64,000 nucleotides of DNA, taken from NCBI RefSeq assembly GCF_900103875.1, contig NZ_LT629705.1, positions 1,130,501 to 1,194,500 of the forward strand, given 5' to 3'. Every line of letters begins with the position of its first letter. The stretch's first letter is position 1. This DNA comes from Pseudomonas arsenicoxydans (GTDB lineage Bacteria > Pseudomonadota > Gammaproteobacteria > Pseudomonadales > Pseudomonadaceae). Positions 26,869 to 45,528 of this stretch are shown here, in pieces. Made by a program: the position numbers and the translations under genes. The notes beneath the pieces were generated by a model. The model was not told where the DNA came from, did not search any database, and saw only the letters and a program-made list of their open reading frames with translations.

Positions 26869-27492
26869 TTAACGCATCAAGTGGGCGAGGGCTTGGTCGT
26901 GGACGTCAGGGCTGGCGGCGAGGCCTTCGCGCACGCCAGCGATGTCTGCGGTGCTGCGGTTCTGGCTGAGCTTGCGTTTGCCTTCCAGGCGCTGGATCGG
27001 CAGGGCAAACCCGACGATGGCTTTGAGCATGCCGTCGATGTAGTCGGCGGGCGCATCCGCCACTTTCCACGGCTGTGCGCGGCCGGCCTCGTGGCGATCG
27101 GTCAGCGAGCTGACCAGGCCAAGCAGACGATCGGCATCGCTGAACACTTCGGCCGTGCCGTAAGCGTGGACGGCAACGTAGTTCCAGGTGGGCACGACTT
27201 TGCCGTGTTCGGCTTTGCTCGGGTAAAATCCCGGACTGACGTAGGCATCGGCACCGGCAAAAATCACCAGCGCCTCGGCCCCGTCCTGCAATTCTTTCCA
27301 CTGCGGATTGGCCCGGGCGAAGTGGCCGTAGAGGGTGCCATTGGGGCCTTCGTCAGGGCGAAAGAGCAACGGCAGATGACTGGCCTGCAGGCCTTGCTCA
27401 CCGTGGGTAATTACCATGGCGAGGCGGGTGCCGAGTATCTGCTGGTGCAGTTCATCCACATCTTTGATGGCAAAGCCGTTTGGGTTGTACAT
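26869..27492 (-). CDS. FMN-binding negative transcriptional regulator family (PaiB-like)
   Basis: 207 residues. PaiB pattern: MYNPNGFAIKDVDELHQQIL, then HLPLLFRPDEGPNGTLYGHFARANPQW and FAGADAYVSPGFYPSKAEHGKVVPTWNY, in an FMN-binding split-barrel fold. In Bacillus the paiA (GNAT)/paiB pair affects sporulation and polyamine acetylation. Here it is followed ten bases on by a GNAT gene, a similar pairing. Divergent from mocR, sharing a 91-base region with an inverted repeat. Confidence 0.9.
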   Translation of the reverse strand: MYNPNGFAIKDVDELHQQILGTRLAMVITHGEQGLQASHLPLLFRPDEGPNGTLYGHFARANPQWKELQDGAEALVIFAGADAYVSPGFYPSKAEHGKVVPTWNYVAVHAYGTAEVFSDADRLLGLVSSLTDRHEAGRAQPWKVADAPADYIDGMLKAIVGFALPIQRLEGKRKLSQNRSTADIAGVREGLAASPDVHDQALAHLMR

Positions 27493-27533
27493 AGAAAAAA
27501 TTCCTTGGCGAATGTCTGCATCCTAGGCAGGCT

Positions 27534-27566
27534 ATTGGTCTGTTGTAAGAGCCATTAATGACCAAT
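27534..27566. promoter_or_regulatory. inverted repeat in the divergent mocR / paiB-like promoter region
   Basis: ATTGGTC-N19-GACCAAT, two perfect 7-bp half sites about three helical turns apart, lie between the start codons of the divergent genes. MocR-family regulators commonly bind next to their divergent target, so this is a candidate site. Not proven. Confidence 0.5.
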
Positions 27567-27583
27567 TTCGTGGGTCCATTGTC

Positions 27584-29131
27584 ATGAGCCAGGCGCCGCT
27601 TTCTCTTTCATTCAACCCCGCCGGTATCGAACTCGATCGTCGCCAGGGCTTGAGCCGCCAGCTTTATCAGGCGTTGCGCCTGCGGGTGCTGGACGGACGA
27701 CTGGCCAGCGGCACACGATTGCCGGCCAGTCGGGATCTGGCGACTGCGCTGGCGATTTCCCGCAACAGCGTGGTCCGTGCCTACGATCAGCTGTACGCAG
27801 AAGGGTTTATCGAAGGGCGTGTCGGCGACGGAACTTACGTGGCGCAATTGCCGCAAGCCGCACTCCCGACGAAAAAACTATCCACAAAAGTATCCACAGG
27901 GTTGTCAACAGGGTTACCCACAACCTTATCCACAAATTGGCTGGATTTGCCTGTGGTTTCATCCAGTAAAGTTATCCACAGCGGGCCTTTAGGGCGCGTT
28001 GAAAAGAATCATTTGGCGCTGCCGCCGAGTGGTCCTCCCCGGGCATTTCGGGTCGGCGTTCCGGCGTTCGATCTGTTTCCTTTCGAGGTCTGGGCCAAGC
28101 TGAATGCGGCTTTCTGGCGAAAACCGGATCTGCAGCAACTGTGTTACGGCGATCCGGCAGGGGATGCGCGTTTGCGCGGCATGATCGCCGCGTACTTGCG
28201 CAGCTCCCGGGGCATGCAATGCTCGGCTGAGCAAATAGTGATCACCAGTGGCGCGCAACAGGGGATTAGCCTTTGTGCACAGCTGCTGGTAGAGCCTGGC
28301 GATGGCGTCGCGATTGAAAATCCGGGGTATCGGGCGGCGGGGCATGCGTTCGCGGTGGCCGGGGCGCGTTTGCATGGTGTGGCGGTGGACGCCGAGGGCA
28401 TCGATTGCACCGAATTGAACGCGCTTAGTGATTGTCGTCTGGCTTATGTGACGCCGTCGCATCAATACCCGACCGGCGTGGTGATGAGCCTGGCGCGACG
28501 CCTTGAATTGCTGGCCTGGGCCGAACGTACCCAAGGCTGGATCGTCGAGGACGACTACGACGGTGAATACCGTTACAGCGGCGCGCCGTTGGCACCGTTG
28601 GCGGCCCTCGATCGGCAGGGGCGGGTGCTGTATGTCGGGACCTTTGGCAAGGTTGCATTCCCGGCATTGAGACTGGGTTATCTGGTGCTGCCACCCGGCC
28701 TGGTTCAGGCTTTCTCACAACGTCGGGCAGTGGATGTTCGACATTCTGAAGTGAGCACCCAGGCGGTGATGGCCGAGTTCATGGGGGCAGGGCACTTTCA
28801 GCGACACATCCGTCGCATGCGCCGTGCGGCCCTTGGCCGGCGCAACACCTTGCTGGCCGGTTGGCCCCAAAACATCCCCGGCATTGGCAGCCTGCCGAGT
28901 GTTGCCGCAGGCTTGCACCTGACGGTGGCGGTCAACTCGCAAGCTCGCGAACGCGAACTGATCGAGCAAGCCGCCAGTGTCGATGTCGAGATCAATGCAC
29001 TGAGCAGCTACTGGCTGCCCGATACACAAACACCGGTGGACCAGCGCGCTGGCCTTGTCCTGGGCTTCGCCGCTGTGCCCGAAGCGGCGATCAACGCAGC
29101 GCTCGCACGCCTGGAAAAGGTCTGGCGTTAA
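27584..29131 (+). CDS. MocR-family regulator (GntR HTH + aminotransferase-like domain)
   Basis: 515 residues. N-terminal GntR winged helix (SRQLYQALRLRVLDG, GTRLPASRDLATALAISRNS), a linker of about 60 residues (85-145), then a fold-type I aminotransferase domain with VEDDYDGEYRYSG and the PLP lysine K356 in TFGKVAFPALRLGYL. MocR proteins bind PLP and ligand amines and mostly regulate their divergent neighbour. The linker repeats (L/V)-(S/P)-T-x five times, residues 99-118, encoded by a 12-bp DNA repeat of DnaA-box type. Rare TTA, CTA and GTA codons appear there, unlike the rest of the gene. Confidence 0.93.
   Translation: MSQAPLSLSFNPAGIELDRRQGLSRQLYQALRLRVLDGRLASGTRLPASRDLATALAISRNSVVRAYDQLYAEGFIEGRVGDGTYVAQLPQAALPTKKLSTKVSTGLSTGLPTTLSTNWLDLPVVSSSKVIHSGPLGRVEKNHLALPPSGPPRAFRVGVPAFDLFPFEVWAKLNAAFWRKPDLQQLCYGDPAGDARLRGMIAAYLRSSRGMQCSAEQIVITSGAQQGISLCAQLLVEPGDGVAIENPGYRAAGHAFAVAGARLHGVAVDAEGIDCTELNALSDCRLAYVTPSHQYPTGVVMSLARRLELLAWAERTQGWIVEDDYDGEYRYSGAPLAPLAALDRQGRVLYVGTFGKVAFPALRLGYLVLPPGLVQAFSQRRAVDVRHSEVSTQAVMAEFMGAGHFQRHIRRMRRAALGRRNTLLAGWPQNIPGIGSLPSVAAGLHLTVAVNSQARERELIEQAASVDVEINALSSYWLPDTQTPVDQRAGLVLGFAAVPEAAINAALARLEKVWR
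27878..27980 (+). repeat. DnaA-box-like array in the mocR linker
   Basis: Five 12-bp tandem units begin at 27878, 27890, 27902, 27914 and 27926 with nonamers CTATCCACA, GTATCCACA, TTGTCAACA, TTACCCACA and TTATCCACA. A sixth, TTATCCACA, is at 27972. TTATCCACA is the consensus DnaA box, and two copies are exact. The sixth is out of frame with the tandem units and gives different residues (V-I-H-S). Confidence 0.75.
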
Positions 29132-29143
29132 TCACGCGGTACC

Positions 29144-32100
29144 TCATGTCTCGGTCTTTGGTTCCAGACCCAGAAACAGTTGGCGCAGGTCCGGGTCGAG
29201 TAGTTTGCGCAGCACGCCATCAATCGGCTCTACGCTGCTCAAGATGTGCTGCTGTTCCGGGGCGAGGGTCTTGAGAAAATCATCCGCGACTTTCAAGTGT
29301 GCCGCGGTGGGGTTATCCGCAGGGCTATCGAGGGCGTCATAGTGAAAATGCGCCACCCAAAACACCAGGTTGTTTGCCTTGTCGAGAATCCGGTATTCCT
29401 GAAACACGTCGCCTAAGCCTTTGGTCTGGATGCGTCCTCGTTCGTCGCGACGGATCTCAACCTGTCGGTTCTCATGCAGCCATTTGAAGGCGCTTTGTGT
29501 CGGCTTGCGCTTTTGGTACAGGCGCGCTCGCACCTCGACACCTTCTTGACGTATCTGGCGTGCCGCCTCCCGCAGTTCCAAGCTGAGCGTGGCGATTGGA
29601 GCAGGGGGGCCACCTGCTTTGTTGATCCGGATGATGGCCCGATCCACCTGGCTGGCACCCTGTTCCAGCTTGAGTGCCTGTTGGTCAAATACATCCTGCA
29701 TGTCGGCGGGTATGCGCCTTGGACGCAGGGCATCCTTGCGCGTTTGGGTGATGAACTCACGAGTATTGAGGTTCAGTTCAATGGCGGCCTCGATAATCTG
29801 GTTGTCATCCAGGGCCGAGGGTGGCAATTGGCGGGTCAACGCGATGGGCTTGATGGGCTCGTCCGTAGTAGTTTCCACTTCAGTCCGGGTGGGCGCGCGC
29901 GGCCGGGTCTTGTGCACTTTGACCGTTTGCCTTGAAGGCCCCTGCTGTCCTCGCTCTGCCGGTTTTCGCACCACCTGCGGCTCTGGCAACAACGCCTGGA
30001 GTCGGTCCTGTGCCAGTTGTTCGAACTCGGCAATAAGCGCTCGCAGATCATTAAGCCGGGGTTGCTTGACCAAGCCTGGGTAGGTGACAGGCAGTTCCTG
30101 AATACGCTGATCGGCATCGGCGAACGCTTCGACCAAACGGCTCATCACTTCCACAGGCACCTGCAAAGGGTGAGGGGTATCAGCCGCTTTTATGAGGTCC
30201 AGCACTTGATTCGCGGCGTGGGCGGCACTCACGACAATCTTGCCGACGGCGTCTCGAGCCTGGGACATCATCGGGCTGGCTTGCTCTTGAATGCACAACT
30301 CCTGCGCCATGCCGATTTCATTGGCTTTGAGATCCAGGGCAGTGAAGGAGGGCGTGAGTTTCCTTATTTTTAGTGATTGCTCAATACCGGCTCGTCCTGC
30401 TGCGCGCATACCCTCAAGCGTCGAGCCCGACAGTGCCAGTTTTTCGACCATTTCGTGGCTCAAGTCGATCGCCTGCTCGATCCTGCTGATGTAGGTCCCT
30501 AGCGGCATTGGATCTGACTGACTTGAGTTGCTCAGCATGTGGGTGGCTTGGGCATACTGGCTTTTCTTGATGACAAACCACAGCGCGAGATTCTTTTGCA
30601 GCAGGGTGCTCATGCGCAGCAGGTCGTAGACATAGTTCTTCGTTCCACCCAACGTGCGCCATTCCTGCAACTGCTCCAACACCTTCTGATACCCGGCGAT
30701 GGTTGTATCCAGTTTTTGCGTGTAAGCCTCGCACAAGCGATCGTAGTCTTTGCTATCGGCTTTCTGAATGTCGGTTTGCATCGCTGTCAGCTCGGTTTCG
30801 CTCAGCGTTTCCTGGTTTTTGAAGGTTTCCAGAACCTTGTCCAATTCATGTTTACGCACCTCGCCAGCGGCGACCTGGGGTTTGCTGAACACATTCCCGG
30901 CCCCCCCTCGCAGGCGTAACCGCAGATCGATAAACCATTGCCCTTTGCTGTTATGAACCAGCGGCGGGCCGGTTCGGCTGAGGCGACTGGGGTCGACGAT
31001 GTAAGCCTGTTCGTCGCCGTTGACCAGGACCTGGAACCAACGGTCGCCGACCTGGGCAAACTGTTTATCGTCGAGCTGGTAGAGATGGGGAGGCGCTTCG
31101 TTTACCTGCGTCACGTTCTCGTCAGCGATATCGATTGCCGGGACTTTGAATGTATCCAGCCAGGCGCCCAGCGCCGCAGGTGTGCGACGTGGCACTGCAC
31201 CCGCGACTTCAAGTGAGGAGTAGTGCTCCGGAGCTAGTTCCGAGGACAGCGGGACGGGGTTGAAGGTAATGGCGCCAGGCTCGATTTTCGGCGTGATTTC
31301 TTTCTCCGTCGAACGCCGTGTTTTGCCTGATAACGTCTTGCGCCGCAGCACGGCGTGATGGCTGAGGATAATGCCCCGGGTCAGGAGAATGTCCGAGACG
31401 GAAGTCCATACGATAAAGCTGTCGCCCTTGTCGCTGGCGTCGAGCGCCTGCTGGATCTCATTGATGCTCTGCCATACCCAGACCGCCGTTCCGACGGCTC
31501 CGCTGAGAACATTCGATGCTGCGTTGAACAAAGCCCAACTGCTGTCTTTGAGCAGGCTCCAGCGTCGTTCGGCATTCGATTGTGACTGGCGGTCAGCCAG
31601 ATCAACCAATGCCTGCGCATTGCTCTTGAACAGCATCGAAAGGACGTTGCCGGTGATCTCTTCACTCTCGAACACCACGCGCCCGAACCGGTTCGCGCGC
31701 TGCAATGGATTGACCAACTGTTCGGCCACCAGCCAGGGGGAAGGCAGGCCCACCGGGAAAACAGACTGAGCGTATTCAAAGCTCAGGGTTTTGTCGGGCA
31801 GCCATGCCAGTAACGAGTCCCTGAGTTCGCCGGGTTGGTGCAGCGCGTACAGCAGGTTTTGCCTGGAGGGAAACTGCAACAAGGGCTGGTCCAGCATTGG
31901 GCGATAAAGCAGACAAGGGCCGCTGTGGGCATTTCGAGGGCTGATGATGAACATGTTTGCGACCGTGTCGCTGGCGCTGATCAAGCGATGTTGCGGTGTC
32001 ATCGTGAGTGGGTAGATGGCAATGGACCTGGTTTTTTCGCTGTCGGGGTCAAGCAGTTCCCTGACGTATCGATAGCCGTGTTCATCGATCCCCGCCTCTT

Positions 32101-33661
32101 GTTTGACCTTGCCCTCAAGCGCCAAAAGCGGCAACAGCAAGCGCAATTGATCGCAGTAGAAGGTTTCCTGGCGACGGGATTCGATGGGGTCATCGATCAG
32201 TTTGCGTTTGATCAGTGCGGGGTACGCTTGGCCGATGTTGACCTGCGCCGCCAGGCTGGAGAGAAACGCAGGCGTCAGCCATTGCGGCAGCGGATGGTCG
32301 CGGATGAAAAAAGCCGTCGCCATGTAAGGCGCCTCGTTTTCCAGCGCGAAGTCGGCCAGGGTTTCGATGCGCTGGTCGAGGGGATTGGGCAGCGTCAGGT
32401 TATCAGTGGTGAAGCTGCTGGTGACGCGGATCCGCAAATCATCCAGCGGCAGGCTCGCGGCCCCTATGGCGCGTGTATCCGCGATGATCGCTTCACGCAT
32501 CAGGCGTTGCGCGTAGTCGGTAATGGAAGGTATCTCGGCTCTGGCGGCCTTGCTGTGCGGTTCACGGTAGAGCATGCCCAGCGCGCTGATGTAACGACCA
32601 TAGTCTTGAATGTCGGTTGTCGATGCTTCGCGTAACCAGTCGGGAATGGCCGAATTCAGTTGTTGGAAGCGAGCGTATTCGAGGGTATCCAGCCCGGTCT
32701 CTGGCAAAACGGCGTCACCGGCAGGCGCATCAAGGGATCTCATCGAGTCTATGGCATCGAGTTGTGACGTCACTAACGCCCAGGCCATGTGGTCAAAGAC
32801 GTTGCCGTCAGGCTCGAACACCTGCCATCTGAGGGCGCGTCCTGCCAGCTGTTCTTCCAGGCGAGCGGGGAGCGAGTCGCCCAATTGTTCCATTGAAGTG
32901 AAAGACTCGTAACCGCGCTCGATCGTGTACATCACCAGCAATTCGCGTTTACCGCTGGTGGCCCTGAGCACCAGGGCGCCTCCGATCAACAGATGGCTGG
33001 CGACCTCGTTTTCGACGGTATCAATATCGATCAGGCATGCCTGGATGGCCGACAGATCGCTGATTGAATGTTTACGGCTGGCTCTATCGGGCTCGTTGAA
33101 TACTTCACGCGCCATGGCGCATTCATCGCCGTCCCAGCCATTGACCGTCTGCACGTTCAGTGCCTTGCGCAACGAATCGGAGAGCTCCAGCCAGCGAGCC
33201 ATTTTCCTGCCTTTCTGGTTCCAGAATTCCAGTTGCTGGCGTTGCAGCTCGATGAACAGCTGCGGTGCTGTGTCGTTCAGCACCTTGGCAATTTCCTCGA
33301 TGCTGACCGCGAGGTGAACCGGGTTCTTGACGTCGGGTTCCAGTGTCAGGAAATGCTGCCCTTCAAGGTAGTTGGCTGTTGTCCCGAACAGGCTGTGTTG
33401 CAAGAGTGTGAAGGTCAGTGACTCGAATTCGATCGGGCCTGCTTCCACCTGGTCGTTCACGACGTTCCATTGCGGTGTAGCGATGGTGGTTTGGTCCGGG
33501 TCGATGTTCAGTTGCGGATAGAGCGTTCCCAATGCCTGGCGCAACAGCTGTGAGGCGACCTCATCCGGCAAAGGACCGTGACTGGTCTGCCCGATCAGCT
33601 CGCTTTTTTCTACTAAAAGCGTGGCGTCATCCAGGGACTCGGATGGAATGATATGGCTCAT
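29144..33661 (-). CDS. large DUF6543 / dermonecrotic-toxin-domain protein
   Basis: 1505 residues from the ATG with AAGG eight bases upstream; an extension of 18 codons is unsupported. Pseudomonads encode many such large proteins annotated with DUF6543 or a dermonecrotic toxin domain; this N-terminal half (residues 100-500) fits that group. A hydrophobic stretch (ASNVLSGAVGTAVWVW, near residue 680-730) may insert into membranes. A short beta module follows (DDKQFAQVGDRWFQVLVNGD). The C-terminal 500 residues are charged helices. No signal peptide, so export would need another route. No immunity gene or secretion gene is adjacent. Monocistronic. The catalytic residue set cannot be named. Confidence 0.85.
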   Translation of the reverse strand: MSHIIPSESLDDATLLVEKSELIGQTSHGPLPDEVASQLLRQALGTLYPQLNIDPDQTTIATPQWNVVNDQVEAGPIEFESLTFTLLQHSLFGTTANYLEGQHFLTLEPDVKNPVHLAVSIEEIAKVLNDTAPQLFIELQRQQLEFWNQKGRKMARWLELSDSLRKALNVQTVNGWDGDECAMAREVFNEPDRASRKHSISDLSAIQACLIDIDTVENEVASHLLIGGALVLRATSGKRELLVMYTIERGYESFTSMEQLGDSLPARLEEQLAGRALRWQVFEPDGNVFDHMAWALVTSQLDAIDSMRSLDAPAGDAVLPETGLDTLEYARFQQLNSAIPDWLREASTTDIQDYGRYISALGMLYREPHSKAARAEIPSITDYAQRLMREAIIADTRAIGAASLPLDDLRIRVTSSFTTDNLTLPNPLDQRIETLADFALENEAPYMATAFFIRDHPLPQWLTPAFLSSLAAQVNIGQAYPALIKRKLIDDPIESRRQETFYCDQLRLLLPLLALEGKVKQEAGIDEHGYRYVRELLDPDSEKTRSIAIYPLTMTPQHRLISASDTVANMFIISPRNAHSGPCLLYRPMLDQPLLQFPSRQNLLYALHQPGELRDSLLAWLPDKTLSFEYAQSVFPVGLPSPWLVAEQLVNPLQRANRFGRVVFESEEITGNVLSMLFKSNAQALVDLADRQSQSNAERRWSLLKDSSWALFNAASNVLSGAVGTAVWVWQSINEIQQALDASDKGDSFIVWTSVSDILLTRGIILSHHAVLRRKTLSGKTRRSTEKEITPKIEPGAITFNPVPLSSELAPEHYSSLEVAGAVPRRTPAALGAWLDTFKVPAIDIADENVTQVNEAPPHLYQLDDKQFAQVGDRWFQVLVNGDEQAYIVDPSRLSRTGPPLVHNSKGQWFIDLRLRLRGGAGNVFSKPQVAAGEVRKHELDKVLETFKNQETLSETELTAMQTDIQKADSKDYDRLCEAYTQKLDTTIAGYQKVLEQLQEWRTLGGTKNYVYDLLRMSTLLQKNLALWFVIKKSQYAQATHMLSNSSQSDPMPLGTYISRIEQAIDLSHEMVEKLALSGSTLEGMRAAGRAGIEQSLKIRKLTPSFTALDLKANEIGMAQELCIQEQASPMMSQARDAVGKIVVSAAHAANQVLDLIKAADTPHPLQVPVEVMSRLVEAFADADQRIQELPVTYPGLVKQPRLNDLRALIAEFEQLAQDRLQALLPEPQVVRKPAERGQQGPSRQTVKVHKTRPRAPTRTEVETTTDEPIKPIALTRQLPPSALDDNQIIEAAIELNLNTREFITQTRKDALRPRRIPADMQDVFDQQALKLEQGASQVDRAIIRINKAGGPPAPIATLSLELREAARQIRQEGVEVRARLYQKRKPTQSAFKWLHENRQVEIRRDERGRIQTKGLGDVFQEYRILDKANNLVFWVAHFHYDALDSPADNPTAAHLKVADDFLKTLAPEQQHILSSVEPIDGVLRKLLDPDLRQLFLGLEPKTET

Positions 33662-33762
33662 GACGGCTACCTTGGAGCAGGGAAGAGGACAAGAAGAACC
33701 TCTTGATTGCACCAACGGTAATGGAGCGCCAGGAGCCGGGGGTGGTAACTATTTATGCCTTC

Positions 33763-41755: not shown

Positions 41756-41880
41756 GATAGAAATCATCTCGATATGGACCCGGTCTGTGCCGGAACACTG
41801 CAAATGCTAGGCTTGTGGATAATTTTCGGCCAATGCTGTTAAACACTGGCCTATGCACATTCGGCATAATGCCCATGTGA

Positions 41881-41896
41881 CGCCACGTCTGTGGCG
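41881..41896. promoter_or_regulatory. candidate LysR operator between aspA and lysR
   Basis: CGCCAC-GTCT-GTGGCG, a perfect 6-bp inverted repeat 40 bases before the lysR start, in the divergent 180-base region. Candidate only. Confidence 0.4.
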
Positions 41897-41935
41897 AACG
41901 TGTGACCTAAATTGGTGCGTGTCCGGGAGGGCGTG

Positions 41936-42844
41936 ATGAATCTGGAAAGTAAATGGCTTGAGGACTTCAGTGCCTTGGCCGCCACCCGCAGCTTCTCCCA
42001 GGCTGCCGAACGACGTTTCGTGACCCAGCCCGCATTCAGTCGGCGAATCCGCAGCCTTGAAGCGGCGCTCGGGCTGCAACTGGTCAACCGTTCGCGCACG
42101 CCCATCGAACTGACGGCGGCGGGACAGCTCTTTCTGGTCACGGCGCGCACCGTGGTCGAGCAGCTCGGTGAAGTGCTGCGCCATCTCCATCACCTGGAAG
42201 GCGGGCAGGGCGAGGTGATGCAGGTGGCCGCCGCTCACTCGCTGGCGTTGGGATTCTTTCCGCGCTGGATCGCCCAGTTACGCAACGAGGGGCTGAACAT
42301 TGCGACGCGCCTTGTGGCGACCAACGTCGGCGATGCGGTGCATGCCTTGCGCGAAGGCGGTTGCGATTTGATGCTGGCGTTCTATGACCCGGACGCGGCG
42401 TTGCAGATGGACTCTGAGATTTTCCCGTCGCTGCACTTGGGCGATACCGAGATGCTGCCGGTTTGCGCCGCCGATGCCGACGGTAAACCGCTGTTCGATC
42501 TGGAGGGGGAAGGCAGTGTGCCGTTGCTCGCCTACAGTGCCGGCGCGTTTCTGGGACGATCGGTGAACATGTTGCTGCGCCAACGGGCGCTGCGCTTCAC
42601 CACCATTTACGAGACCGCCATGGCGGACAGCCTGAAAAGCATGGCGCTGGAAGGGCTGGGTATCGCCTGGGTGCCGCAACTCAGCGTACGCGCCGAACTG
42701 GCTCGCGGTGAGCTGGTCGTCTGCGGCGGCCCGCAATGGCATGTGCCCCTGGAGATTCGCCTGTATCGCTGCGCATTGGTGCGCAAGGCGAATGTGCGGT
42801 TGTTGTGGCGCAAACTTGAAGGTGGCGCCGCAGCGAGCGCATGA
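41936..42844 (+). CDS. LysR-family regulator divergent from aspA
   Basis: 302 residues from the ATG with GGGAGG upstream. Winged helix-turn-helix (RSFSQAAERRFVTQPAFSRR) at residues 18-37 and a LysR effector domain from about residue 90. Divergence from aspA suggests control of aspartate catabolism, inferred. The last 23 coding bases resemble a stretch at 43788-43810, hinting at duplication of the gene's tail during insertion of the protease islet. Confidence 0.92.
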   Translation: MNLESKWLEDFSALAATRSFSQAAERRFVTQPAFSRRIRSLEAALGLQLVNRSRTPIELTAAGQLFLVTARTVVEQLGEVLRHLHHLEGGQGEVMQVAAAHSLALGFFPRWIAQLRNEGLNIATRLVATNVGDAVHALREGGCDLMLAFYDPDAALQMDSEIFPSLHLGDTEMLPVCAADADGKPLFDLEGEGSVPLLAYSAGAFLGRSVNMLLRQRALRFTTIYETAMADSLKSMALEGLGIAWVPQLSVRAELARGELVVCGGPQWHVPLEIRLYRCALVRKANVRLLWRKLEGGAAASA

Positions 42845-42888
42845 GGTCCCGAAGAGCGCGAGCGTTATCTCGCGCCCTACGGCAAGTT

Positions 42889-43563
42889 TCAGTACCGGCT
42901 GTCGACATAGTCCTTTATGCGTTTCCTGTTGCCTTCGCTAAAGACGAAACAGTTCGATCGAAGGGGCAAGGGTTCGAACATGAACGTTTCGCACCACCAG
43001 CCGTTATAAAGCACTTCGCCTTCTTCATGAATGGCATTGAAAGAATGTCCCAGCTCATGCCCGATCACCTGCTTAAAGTCGAGCGAAGCGATAGCCGTCA
43101 ATCCGGGTCCATTTGCGATACCACCCACGCCGCCAAATACCGGGCCACCGTTAATGAAGTCGTTGGTGATCAACAGTATTCGGTCATTGCTTGACAGGGG
43201 AAATTCATTACGCTCATACCGTTCTCTTTTATATTCCCACGCTAACTTTTTCCAATCTTCAAACATGTTGTTTTGGTCTTTGGATTTATAGTTGAAGTTG
43301 GTGTAGGGCGGTCTGCTTCGATCAAAAATAACGTGAATTTTTCGACCGGTGATGTTCTCGAATTCGGCGGTGAACGGGCGAATATGATCTGCGTAGGTTG
43401 TGCTTCGCTTCGCCGCTGGCACATCATCGTGGAAAATTGCAAAAAGCCGGATGGGATTAGCTGGGTCATCTTTAAGTTTGTCTGGAGGATCGATAGCGTG
43501 TGCACTCAAGCTAATCATGAGTGTAAGGATGAAAGTAATGATTGGTTTTAATAATGCGTACAT
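42889..43563 (-). CDS. exported metzincin-like zinc metalloprotease, copy A
   Basis: 224 residues with a Sec signal peptide (LLKPIITFILTLMISLSAHA). Zinc motif HELGHSFNAIH, i.e. HExGHxxxxxH with H169, E170, H173 and H179, followed by a Met-turn candidate M195 (WCETFM). Two cysteines only, C191 and C205, fit one disulfide in the exported protein. Full-length homology to the next gene, including FHDD, NITGRKIHVIF and YNGWW. Looks like a small metzincin; no propeptide is clear. AT-rich compared with neighbours. Target unknown. Confidence 0.82.
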   Translation of the reverse strand: MYALLKPIITFILTLMISLSAHAIDPPDKLKDDPANPIRLFAIFHDDVPAAKRSTTYADHIRPFTAEFENITGRKIHVIFDRSRPPYTNFNYKSKDQNNMFEDWKKLAWEYKRERYERNEFPLSSNDRILLITNDFINGGPVFGGVGGIANGPGLTAIASLDFKQVIGHELGHSFNAIHEEGEVLYNGWWCETFMFEPLPLRSNCFVFSEGNRKRIKDYVDSRY

Positions 43564-43879
43564 GGATTTGTCTCGTGATGGTATCGCTCTCGGTAAATTT
43601 AAGAGGGCAATGACAGTTTATTGTTAGTGATGCTGAAACAGGCTTGGCATTACTTGGTGTTTTTTGCGAAGGCGGTACGTGCTTGACCTTCGTGTAGATA
43701 ACCAACGCTTCTTGATTTATAACAGTGGGCGACTGTCGTTTCTGCCGTAGAAGAGGGCTAGATCCTGGCGGCCATCGCTCATCCCGTCGCAAACTTGAGG
43801 GCGGCGCTGCTGGCCTTGCTGCTGAGATGGGTGAAGGGCAAGTCAATGCCTCTCGCCCAGGGAAATGATTTTGCGGATG
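43564..43879. other. AT-rich spacer between the two protease genes with a LysR-tail-like fragment
   Basis: 316 bases. A 23-base stretch (43788-43810) resembles the last bases of lysR (42809-42831), reading R-K-L-E-G-G-A-A in the same phase, followed by 19 more codons to a TGA at 43868. The rest is AT-rich with no convincing gene. Confidence 0.5.
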
Positions 43880-44563
43880 TCAGTCGAATTGACTGAGATA
43901 GTTTCGAATATTGTCGCGGTTCTTTTCGCTGAAATGGTAATAATTACCTCGGACCGGAGAGTTGACGTCATATTTCATAATCGTGTCATGCCACCAGCCG
44001 TTGTAGACGATATCCGAATCTTCATGGGTGGCACCGAACATATGACCTATTTCGTGAGCAGGCGTCAGGTAGGAATCGATCGTAGCCATTGCGCTCTGAC
44101 CTCTGTTGGAAGCGATTCCCGCGACGCGGCTGTTCATCCCGTGACGAGTGAGTAACAGAAATTTGTCCAGGTTAGGATTGAAAGGGAATGTTGTATCCGC
44201 TTTCGCTTGCAAGTCTTTAACCTTGTTTTCCCAGCCCCGAAGGGCCTCTGCAGCGTTTTCATTTCTGTAGTTGTAATTGGTCATTTTCGGAGCTGTGGAT
44301 TGAGAGTTGAAAATAACCGTAACCGCGCGGCCGGAGATGTCTTCAAGCTCGGTCTCCAGCCAAGAAAAGTAGTTGTCGTAGAGCTTGCCTTTATCGTGTT
44401 CATCAAGATCGTCGTGGATAAAGACGAGTAAAAGAATGGGCTTTTTGAGGCGCTCAGGTTGCCCATCATTTATCAGCGAGCGTCTGTGTTGCACGCTGTG
44501 ATTGTTTTCAATTGTGCCATCTTTCAGATTGTCGATAATCTGACTTGCTTTGCCTTTGTTCAC
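43880..44563 (-). CDS. metzincin-like zinc metalloprotease, copy B (no signal peptide)
   Basis: 227 residues, GTG start with GGAC eight bases upstream. Zinc motif HEIGHMFGATH with H170, E171, H174 and H180, and M196 (HDTIM) as Met-turn candidate. About 40% identical by eye to copy A over the whole domain (SGRAVTVIF; FPFNPN; VYNGWWHDTIM; FSEKNRDNIRNYL). No signal peptide and no cysteine at all, so it probably stays in the cytoplasm or leaves by a leaderless route. The N-terminal 40 residues are unrelated to copy A and hydrophilic. Confidence 0.8.
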   Translation of the reverse strand: MNKGKASQIIDNLKDGTIENNHSVQHRRSLINDGQPERLKKPILLLVFIHDDLDEHDKGKLYDNYFSWLETELEDISGRAVTVIFNSQSTAPKMTNYNYRNENAAEALRGWENKVKDLQAKADTTFPFNPNLDKFLLLTRHGMNSRVAGIASNRGQSAMATIDSYLTPAHEIGHMFGATHEDSDIVYNGWWHDTIMKYDVNSPVRGNYYHFSEKNRDNIRNYLSQFD

Positions 44564-44933
44564 GTCATAGTCCTTTATGTACTTCCCGCTGGAGAGGGGT
44601 TGGTGTTGTTTGTCTGTTGGCGATGTTTATTGTTGTGCTGATGCGGGCGTATAGTTTGTGCGGTGTTTCTATTTGAAGTTGTAAGTTAAGTTTGGTCGCT
44701 TGGCGTGGCAAGTTTCAAGTTGTTCTGTAATGTGTCTTGGGTGTTAATTCCGTAAGAACTCGGAGCCCAAAATAGTTATGGGCTTTTACACTATAGAGGC
44801 CAGTTTGCCTGTCACGGCCAAGAGGTTCTTTGGTTGACTTTCGAGTCAGTAACCCGGGCTTTTAGTGATCTATGACAGATGGTCGGCCAAGGGGCTGTTT
44901 ATCTGCCTCATTGAGGTATACTGCGCGGCCTTC

Positions 44934-44956
44934 GGCCGGTTCGTCCGGCCATTTTT
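44934..44956 (+). terminator. terminator-like hairpin 1 in the purE leader
   Basis: GGCCGG / CCGGCC stem with a five-base loop TTCGT, followed directly by ATTTTT. Confidence 0.6.
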
Positions 44957-44964
44957 CGTACAAT

Positions 44965-44998
44965 CAAGCCACGCATTTCTGCGTGGCTTGTTGTTTTT
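44965..44998 (+). terminator. terminator-like hairpin 2 in the purE leader
   Basis: Perfect 10-bp stem CAAGCCACGC / GCGTGGCTTG with a six-base loop, followed by TTGTTTTT. It precedes the purE start by 39 bases and follows hairpin 1, so purEK transcripts from the promoter upstream must pass both. Confidence 0.7.
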
Positions 44999-45036
44999 GA
45001 CGCGCCTGCGGGCGCCCAGAGAGAAGAGGCACGACG

Positions 45037-45528
45037 ATGAGTGCACTGGTTGGCGTGATCATGGGCTCCAAGTCCGATTGGTCCACCCTTAGCCACACCG
45101 CCGATATGCTGGAAAAGCTCGGCATTCCTTACGAGGTGAAAGTGGTCTCTGCCCACCGCACCCCGGACCTGCTGTTCCAGTACGCCGAAGAGGCCGAGGC
45201 GCGGGGCATCGAGGTGATCATCGCCGGTGCCGGTGGCGCGGCCCACTTGCCTGGCATGTGTGCGGCCAAGACCCACCTGCCAGTGCTGGGCGTCCCGGTG
45301 CAGTCGTCGATGCTTTCGGGCGTCGATTCACTGCTCTCTATCGTGCAGATGCCCGCTGGCATTCCGGTTGCTACCCTGGCCATTGGCAAGGCTGGCGCGA
45401 TCAACGCCGCCCTGCTGTCGGCGAGCATCCTGGGCGCCAAGCACCCGCAGTTCCATGCGGTGCTGAAAACTTTCCGTGCTGAGCAGACAGACAGCGTCCT
45501 GGACAATCCAGACCCACGCATCGCCTGA
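45037..45528 (+). CDS. purE: N5-carboxyaminoimidazole ribonucleotide mutase
   Basis: 163 residues, full length for class I PurE. Moves the carboxyl group from N5-CAIR to CAIR in purine synthesis. [20 protein letters not shown] and [18 protein letters not shown] hold the substrate residues, including the catalytic His. GGAAHLPGM is also typical. The octameric enzyme is cytoplasmic. It is eleven bases before purK, so one operon. A leader with two terminator-like hairpins precedes it. Confidence 0.97.

What the first reader, a model, noticed from the sequence alone, without database searches (positions are those of the whole stretch)
27878..27980. DnaA-box-like array in the coding linker of a MocR regulator
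Five units at an exact 12-bp period (27878 to 27937) each carry a nonamer matching or near TTATCCACA: CTATCCACA, GTATCCACA, TTGTCAACA, TTACCCACA, TTATCCACA. A sixth perfect TTATCCACA is at 27972 in a different reading frame. Rare TTA, CTA and GTA codons are used, unlike the surrounding GC-rich gene. The out-of-frame sixth copy suggests DNA-level rather than protein-level selection. Possible roles: a DnaA titration or reactivation site (like datA/DARS), or DnaA control of this gene. A simple expanding repeat for a flexible Ser/Thr linker is the main alternative.
Basis: partly seen in the sequence, partly recalled or inferred. Interest (0 to 1): 0.78.

Follow-up and report, generated by a model that had tools for sequence, protein, structure and literature searches.

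The report
DnaA-binding array hidden in a gene
Inside an ordinary regulator gene of Pseudomonas lies a conserved row of likely binding sites for DnaA, the protein that starts chromosome copying; the row survives in two genomes where the gene itself is gone or wrecked, so the DNA itself probably has a job, most likely in timing chromosome copying.

Summary
A MocR gene (27584-29131 +) of a 6.5-Mb Pseudomonas holds five DnaA-box-like units at exactly 12 bp and a sixth, perfect box in another reading frame: the genome's only hit to the tandem pattern searched.

Selection on DNA is strongly supported. (1) In 121 non-redundant orthologues the rare codons are frozen, e.g. TTA at Leu115 in 120/121, though TTA is 2.6% of Leu codons. 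(2) A second frozen block about 290 bp downstream (28226-28282) is kept in 123/127 array-bearing and 0/23 array-less orthologues, and is also lost in the two orthologues that lost the array secondarily. (3) In two genomes mocR is gone or a relic, yet the array remains, 54 and 103 kb from dnaA. (4) The array lies 48-159 kb from dnaA in 32 of 33 genomes.

Single boxes also crowd oriC: 36 of 135 lie within 32 kb; outside the oriC core 29/32 are identical in a second genome, against 118/316 control 9-mers.

Best reading: an oriC-proximal DnaA-sequestering or -inactivating site (datA-like) embedded in coding sequence. DnaA binding and its effect are inferred, not shown.

The parts
27584..29131 (+). 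mocR-type regulator gene (515 aa), host of the element; divergent from the FMN-binding protein gene 26869-27492 (-)
   Evidence: PF00392 GntR and PF00155 Aminotran_1_2; ORFs
27878..27886 (+). unit 1, CTATCCACA
   Evidence: at most 1 mismatch in 116 of 127 array-bearing orthologues
27890..27898 (+). unit 2, GTATCCACA
   Evidence: at most 1 mismatch in 103 of 127
27902..27910 (+). unit 3, TTGTCAACA, conserved as a weak unit
   Evidence: at most 1 mismatch in 5 of 127; TTTTCAACA or TTGTCAACA in 79 of 127
27914..27922 (+). unit 4, TTACCCACA
   Evidence: at most 1 mismatch in 122 of 127
27926..27934 (+). unit 5, perfect box TTATCCACA
   Evidence: perfect in 124 of 127
27972..27980 (+). sixth box, perfect TTATCCACA in another reading frame, 46 bp from unit 5
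   Evidence: at this offset perfect in 100 of 127, at most 1 mismatch in 107
28226..28282 (+). second frozen block (codons 215-233), accessory part of the element
   Evidence: frozen codons in array-bearing but not in array-less orthologues
28229..28243 (.). Fis-consensus 15-mer within the second block (candidate only)
   Evidence: fits GNNYANNNNNTRNNC in 127 of 127 array-bearing, 8 of 23 array-less orthologues; consensus from PMC4585315
28271..28282 (+). CTTTGTGCACAG, invariant 3' part of the second block; binder unknown
   Evidence: 123 of 127 array-bearing, 0 of 23 array-less

Best explanation
The mocR linker carries a cis-acting DNA element for the initiator DnaA: five head-to-tail boxes of graded strength at 12 bp, a sixth box 46 bp on, and an accessory block about 290 bp downstream. 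It most likely binds DnaA cooperatively. Lying mostly 50-160 kb from oriC, it would be copied soon after each initiation, so the amount of bound or inactivated DnaA rises at once and premature re-initiation is damped. That is the logic of E. coli datA and of B. subtilis DnaA-box clusters. Shown here: the anatomy, selection on DNA rather than protein, joint loss of the two blocks, survival without the gene in two genomes, and oriC proximity. Inferred: that DnaA is the binder (from the exact consensus shared with oriC and its halo), that the effect is negative, and that Fis acts at the second block.
For: Frozen rare codons over the array. Fixed 12-bp and 46-bp offsets in two reading frames. In 148 Pseudomonas genomes 112 of 145 tandem-pattern hits lie in this orthologue, in 101 genomes. 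Arrays without an intact gene in G037 and G043, on the usual side of and at the usual distance from dnaA. Second block kept with the array and lost in both secondary array-loss orthologues. 48-159 kb from dnaA in 32 of 33 genomes, 32 of 33 on the same side, 33 of 33 transcribed away from it. The same nonamer occurs four times in the oriC region and in a conserved halo around it.
Against: No binding or replication data. The site lies in a transcribed gene; for B. subtilis an ORF-internal site strong in vitro was not detectably bound in vivo (PMC4447404 passage). Nearness to oriC came before the array: 6 of 7 array-less orthologues are within 126 kb. G029 keeps the array 1.34 Mb from dnaA. No IHF site is conserved in the gene, whereas datA needs one. 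The two gene-less arrays lack the second block, and two units of the G043 array have degraded. PMC5295017 states that the B. subtilis clusters play no significant role in initiation, although removing all six gave early initiation.
Confidence: 0.6

Rival explanations
1. DARS-like site: DnaA on the array, helped by Fis at the second block, releases ADP and regenerates active ATP-DnaA, so the element promotes initiation.
For: A distant Fis-consensus 15-mer fixed in 127 of 127 array-bearing orthologues. DARS2 of E. coli uses DnaA boxes plus IHF and Fis sites (PMC4245941 passages).
Against: No conserved IHF site. The array is a head-to-tail row of five to six units, whereas the DARS core is described as three boxes. 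Its place close to oriC fits an early negative site better (PMC4585315 passage). 8 of 23 array-less orthologues also fit the Fis consensus.
Confidence: 0.15
2. DnaA as local regulator: DnaA on the array blocks or tunes transcription of mocR and, through it, of the divergent FMN-binding gene.
For: The array lies inside the transcribed gene about 300 bp after the ATG; DnaA can act as a transcription factor (abstract of PMC8203912 in the listing).
Against: Arrays persist where mocR is gone or wrecked. The array is not in the promoter. DnaA boxes near oriC are conserved far beyond this gene.
Confidence: 0.12
3. Another DNA- or RNA-level element that only resembles DnaA boxes, such as a binding site for another protein or an mRNA motif.
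For: The second block (28226-28282) and a stretch at codons 168-175 (28085-28108) are frozen but are not DnaA boxes. The mRNA carries the same repeats.
Against: Exact DnaA consensus shared with oriC and its halo. No Rfam match at E up to 1 in 27400-29200. The arrays are kept without an intact mocR.
Confidence: 0.08
4. Protein-level repeat: a simple 12-bp expansion encoding a flexible Ser/Thr-rich linker.
For: Units 1-5 are in codon phase and encode (L/V)ST repeats. The deeper array-less orthologues have linkers of 55-60 residues against mostly 75-82 between the same landmarks.
Against: Frozen rare codons; sixth box out of frame; arrays kept without the protein; a distant block lost together with the array.
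Confidence: 0.03

Closest known systems
E. coli datA (datA-dependent DnaA-ATP hydrolysis)
   Same: A cluster of DnaA boxes outside but close to oriC, so copied early; conserved distance from oriC (PMC4585315 and PMC10950094 passages).
   Different: datA is non-coding and needs an IHF site; here the array is inside a coding sequence, is a regular 12-bp head-to-tail row, and no IHF site is conserved. Activity not tested.
E. coli DARS1/DARS2 (DnaA-reactivating sequences)
   Same: DnaA boxes plus, in DARS2, distant sites for Fis (PMC4245941 passages); here a distant Fis-consensus 15-mer.
   Different: DARS share a core of three boxes and DARS2 needs IHF sites; here five to six same-strand boxes and no IHF site. 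Activity not tested.
B. subtilis oriC-proximal DnaA-box clusters (DBCs)
   Same: DnaA-box clusters outside oriC that hold DnaA; removing all six gave early initiation (review PMC5295017 passage; the original paper is not held).
   Different: Several clusters act together there, and the review calls their role not significant; here one tandem array plus a halo of single boxes, with the array in a coding sequence.
MocR linkers in general
   Same: Host protein is a GntR-aminotransferase fusion with a variable linker.
   Different: Here the linker codons are constrained by DNA; array-less orthologues of the same gene have free codons.

Membership tests
datA | cluster of DnaA boxes outside oriC | tested here: met
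   five units plus a sixth box; two perfect, three one mismatch, one two mismatches
datA | IHF-binding site between essential boxes | tested here: not met
   no WATCAANNNNTTR match in more than 10% of 127 array-bearing orthologues anywhere in the gene; consensus typed from recall
datA | close to oriC, duplicated soon after initiation | tested here: met
   48-159 kb from dnaA in 32 of 33 genomes
datA | stimulates DnaA-ATP hydrolysis; deletion causes extra initiations | not testable with these tools
   needs biochemistry and genetics
DARS | conserved core of three DnaA boxes in the DARS arrangement | tested here: not met
   five to six same-strand boxes at 12 and 46 bp; no base-by-base comparison with the E. 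coli core was made
DARS | Fis (and IHF) sites needed for activity (DARS2) | tested here: inconclusive
   Fis-consensus 15-mer in 127 of 127 array-bearing but also 8 of 23 array-less orthologues; no IHF site
DARS | promotes ADP release from DnaA | not testable with these tools
   needs biochemistry
DnaA-box cluster (B. subtilis DBC type) | cluster of DnaA boxes near but outside oriC | tested here: met
DnaA-box cluster (B. subtilis DBC type) | binds DnaA in vivo and its removal advances initiation | not testable with these tools
   needs ChIP and mutants
MocR regulator (host gene) | GntR-type wHTH fused to an aminotransferase-like domain | tested here: met
   PF00392 at residues 23-86, PF00155 at 186-427

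The most novel reading that the evidence does not exclude
A new class of initiator-control element: a two-part DnaA array with an accessory (Fis-like) block, embedded in a coding sequence. It arose once inside mocR in the fluorescens/putida/syringae lineage of Pseudomonas, can outlive the gene, and works together with a conserved +-32-kb halo of single DnaA boxes around oriC as one origin-proximal DnaA reservoir that sets initiation timing.
Probability: 0.35. Interest if true: 0.87.

Novelty: new variant of a known kind. Interest (0 to 1): 0.74.

Why it matters
Control of DnaA by chromosomal sites is worked out mainly in E. coli and, less, in B. subtilis. My ten searches of an open-licence library listed no paper on such a site in Pseudomonas; closed papers could not be searched. 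This gives a precise candidate, spread widely through the genus, that one synonymous recoding can test without changing the protein. It is also a clear case of a DNA element frozen inside a coding sequence and outliving the gene, and the conserved box halo makes the initiator-titration idea directly testable in another genus.

Tried and rejected
Repeat expansion for a Ser/Thr linker: rejected by the synonymous test and the arrays without an intact gene. Selection of the array having brought the gene near oriC: not supported, as 6 of 7 array-less orthologues measured are within 126 kb. Loss of the array going with removal from oriC: one case for (G129, gene and dnaA 2.11 Mb apart on one contig), one against (G029, array kept at 1.34 Mb); L034 could not be placed. 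One search printed 976 kb for G129 because my script wrapped a 3.09-Mb contig that is only part of that genome; 2.11 Mb is right. IHF site: none conserved. Known RNA: none. A replacement array in array-less genomes: the 33 tandem hits elsewhere looked mixed; ten of these places were fetched, one intergenic set (L178) was read, and none was pursued. The frozen stretch at codons 168-175 (28085-28108) is unexplained; L108, which lost the array, keeps it nearly unchanged. The z-scores do not correct for shared ancestry; the control is the other columns of the same gene. Columns with fewer than 25 sequences sharing the residue were not scored, and the frozen stretch before the ATG is non-coding DNA. 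The array-less group is mostly one lineage (21 of 23) and was picked because it aligned poorly, so 23 of 150 is no frequency. One search missed 5 of 110 loci with its linker pattern; one search recovered them by BLAST.

Full report
What is there. The window lies in a 6.50-Mb Pseudomonas chromosome at C1:1130501-1194500 (genus from the orthologues). The gene at 27584-29131 (+) encodes a 515-aa MocR regulator, divergent from an FMN-binding protein gene (26869-27492, -). Its linker holds units at 27878, 27890, 27902, 27914 and 27926 and a sixth perfect box at 27972 in another frame. The tandem two-box pattern occurs once in the genome. Re-coding the same peptide with the gene's own codons never reaches the observed number of near-boxes in 20000 draws. 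The segment 27872-27983 is 43% G+C in a 61% gene.

Conservation. I studied 150 loci: the 80 named ones, 30 delivered and 40 fetched by coordinates; some named and unnamed loci are the same species. Of the 150, 127 have at least three near-boxes in the linker, and 23 have none. At fixed 12-bp offsets units 1 to 5 are within one mismatch of TTATCCACA in 116, 103, 5, 122 and 127 of 127, and the sixth box, 46 bp on, in 107 of 127; unit 3 is kept as a weak TTTTCAACA or TTGTCAACA in 79. In 121 array-bearing orthologues under 96% nucleotide identity, Leu115 is TTA in 120/121, Thr105 and Thr117 ACA in 121/121 and Ser100 TCC in 121/121, while TTA is 2.6% of Leu and ACA 8.2% of Thr codons outside the linker. 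This is the strongest synonymous-constraint window of the coding gene (mean z 18.5, median window 4.2). In 148 genomes the tandem pattern gives 145 hits, 112 of them in or within 600 bp of this orthologue in 101 genomes, 33 elsewhere in 23 genomes; the reversed control gives 2 hits in all. Ten further genomes whose orthologue had no hit were then read: nine carry the array with weaker or altered units and also the second block; in the tenth (G146), whose gene is disrupted, a weak array and the second block remain. G132, also without a hit, carries both.

A second part. Codons 215-233 (28226-28282) are also frozen, but only with the array: CTTTGTGCACAG in 123 of 127 array-bearing orthologues (the other four differ by one base) and in 0 of 23 array-less ones. 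The 15-mer at 28229-28243 fits the Fis consensus given in PMC4585315 (passage) in 127 of 127. It is the only position of 1530 tested that fits in over 90% of either group, but 8 of 23 array-less orthologues fit too, so the Fis reading is suggestive only. The protein tree (linker left out, quick method, midpoint root) needs three changes, readable as one gain and two losses; well-supported branches alone force two, so the two losses (L034, L108) are probably but not certainly separate. Both have also lost the frozen codons of the second block (CTC/GCG and CTG/GCG in place of CTT/GCA) and do not fit the Fis consensus. This suggests that the two parts are one element. Against it, 21 of the 23 array-less orthologues are one lineage, and both gene-less arrays lack the second block.

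Arrays without an intact gene. In G037 mocR is a relic with a stop and large deletions, yet four units at 12 bp remain. In G043 no match to the mocR or FMN protein is found in the 4.5-kb locus, yet five units remain, two of them degraded, beside the same GNAT gene; neither genome shows an orthologue elsewhere (best E 3e-73 and 1e-29, in the range of paralogues). The arrays lie 103 and 54 kb from dnaA, on the usual side and in the usual orientation. A 351-bp query from G043 matches 13 other genomes over the array (in two of them about 35 bp further); two short hits fall elsewhere in the query. Both loci lack CTTTGTGCACAG. In G034 the reading frame is broken just before an intact array; a sequencing error is not excluded. 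How old these losses are is unknown.

Place on the chromosome. dnaA is at 1064328 (-), with four perfect boxes beside it at 1065388-1065660, taken as oriC; the array is 93 kb from there. In 33 array genomes where both could be placed, gene and dnaA are 48-159 kb apart in 32 and 1.34 Mb apart in one (G029); 32 of 33 are on the same side of dnaA, and all 33 are transcribed away from it. Of seven array-less orthologues of the deeper lineage six are within 126 kb and one is 1.37 Mb away, three of the seven on the other side: nearness to oriC came before the array. Of the 40 genomes, three had no orthologue and five were left out because their contig length was not in hand.

A halo around oriC. The genome holds 135 perfect TTATCCACA (reversed control 25; only the first 100 places were listed). 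36 lie between 1036710 and 1097015, 25 of them inside open frames of 150 codons or more. All 36 align to G062 and 33 are identical; outside the oriC core 29 of 32, against 118 of 316 same-composition 9-mers and 19 of 63 flanking 9-mers (binomial p 5e-10). G062 has 38 in 80 kb; G138, of the array-less lineage, has 10 in 80 kb. G015 has 12 in its first 33 kb. G078, array-less, has 16 in the last 49 kb before the origin but only two in the first 118 kb after it. Places for G108, G113 and G018 were not listed. So boxes near oriC are themselves under selection, at least between G000 and G062, and the mocR array is the outlying tandem member.

What it most likely does. E. coli datA promotes DnaA-ATP hydrolysis and lies close to oriC; DARS2 reactivates DnaA with IHF and Fis; removing six B. 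subtilis clusters gave early initiation (passages of PMC4585315, PMC10950094, PMC4245941 and the review PMC5295017). The tandem spacing, graded strengths and early copying favour a sink or inactivation site; the Fis-like block leaves a DARS-like role open. DnaA binding was not measured, and the gene may be transcribed through the site.

Literature. Ten searches listed no paper on this site. Only open-licence papers are searchable; apart from the passages cited I saw listings only. The review PMC8203912 mentions 12 DnaA boxes at the P. putida dnaA promoter (passage).

Noticed in passing
G000:C1:1036710-1097015 (loci L122-L125), outside the window: Halo of 36 perfect TTATCCACA within 32 kb of oriC (135 in the genome); 29 of 32 outside the oriC core are identical in G062 against 118 of 316 control 9-mers. 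Perhaps of wider interest than the array itself.
   Followed up: partly
window 28085-28108: Another stretch of frozen codons in mocR (codons 168-175, e.g. GCC 105/105 and AAG 120/120) of unknown cause.
   Followed up: no
L235 2677, L236 881, L237 272, L238 2880, L239 2772, L243 558, L244 785: In several lineages a perfect DnaA box lies on the opposite strand about 80-95 bp before the 3' end of mocR.
   Followed up: no
L178 1653-1697 (G008): In an array-less genome an intergenic set TTATCAACA / CTATCCACA / TTATCCACA, the last two 12 bp apart: a possible independent array.
   Followed up: no
window 41814-45097: Five DnaA-box-like sites with at most one mismatch in 3.3 kb (41814, 43693, 44413, 44530, 45089).
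   Followed up: no
window 29144-33715 (-): Large ORF (1523 aa) with a ToxA_N domain (Pfam name: dermonecrotic toxin, N-terminal), next to mocR in the related loci compared, at 29-66% identity where matched.
   Followed up: no
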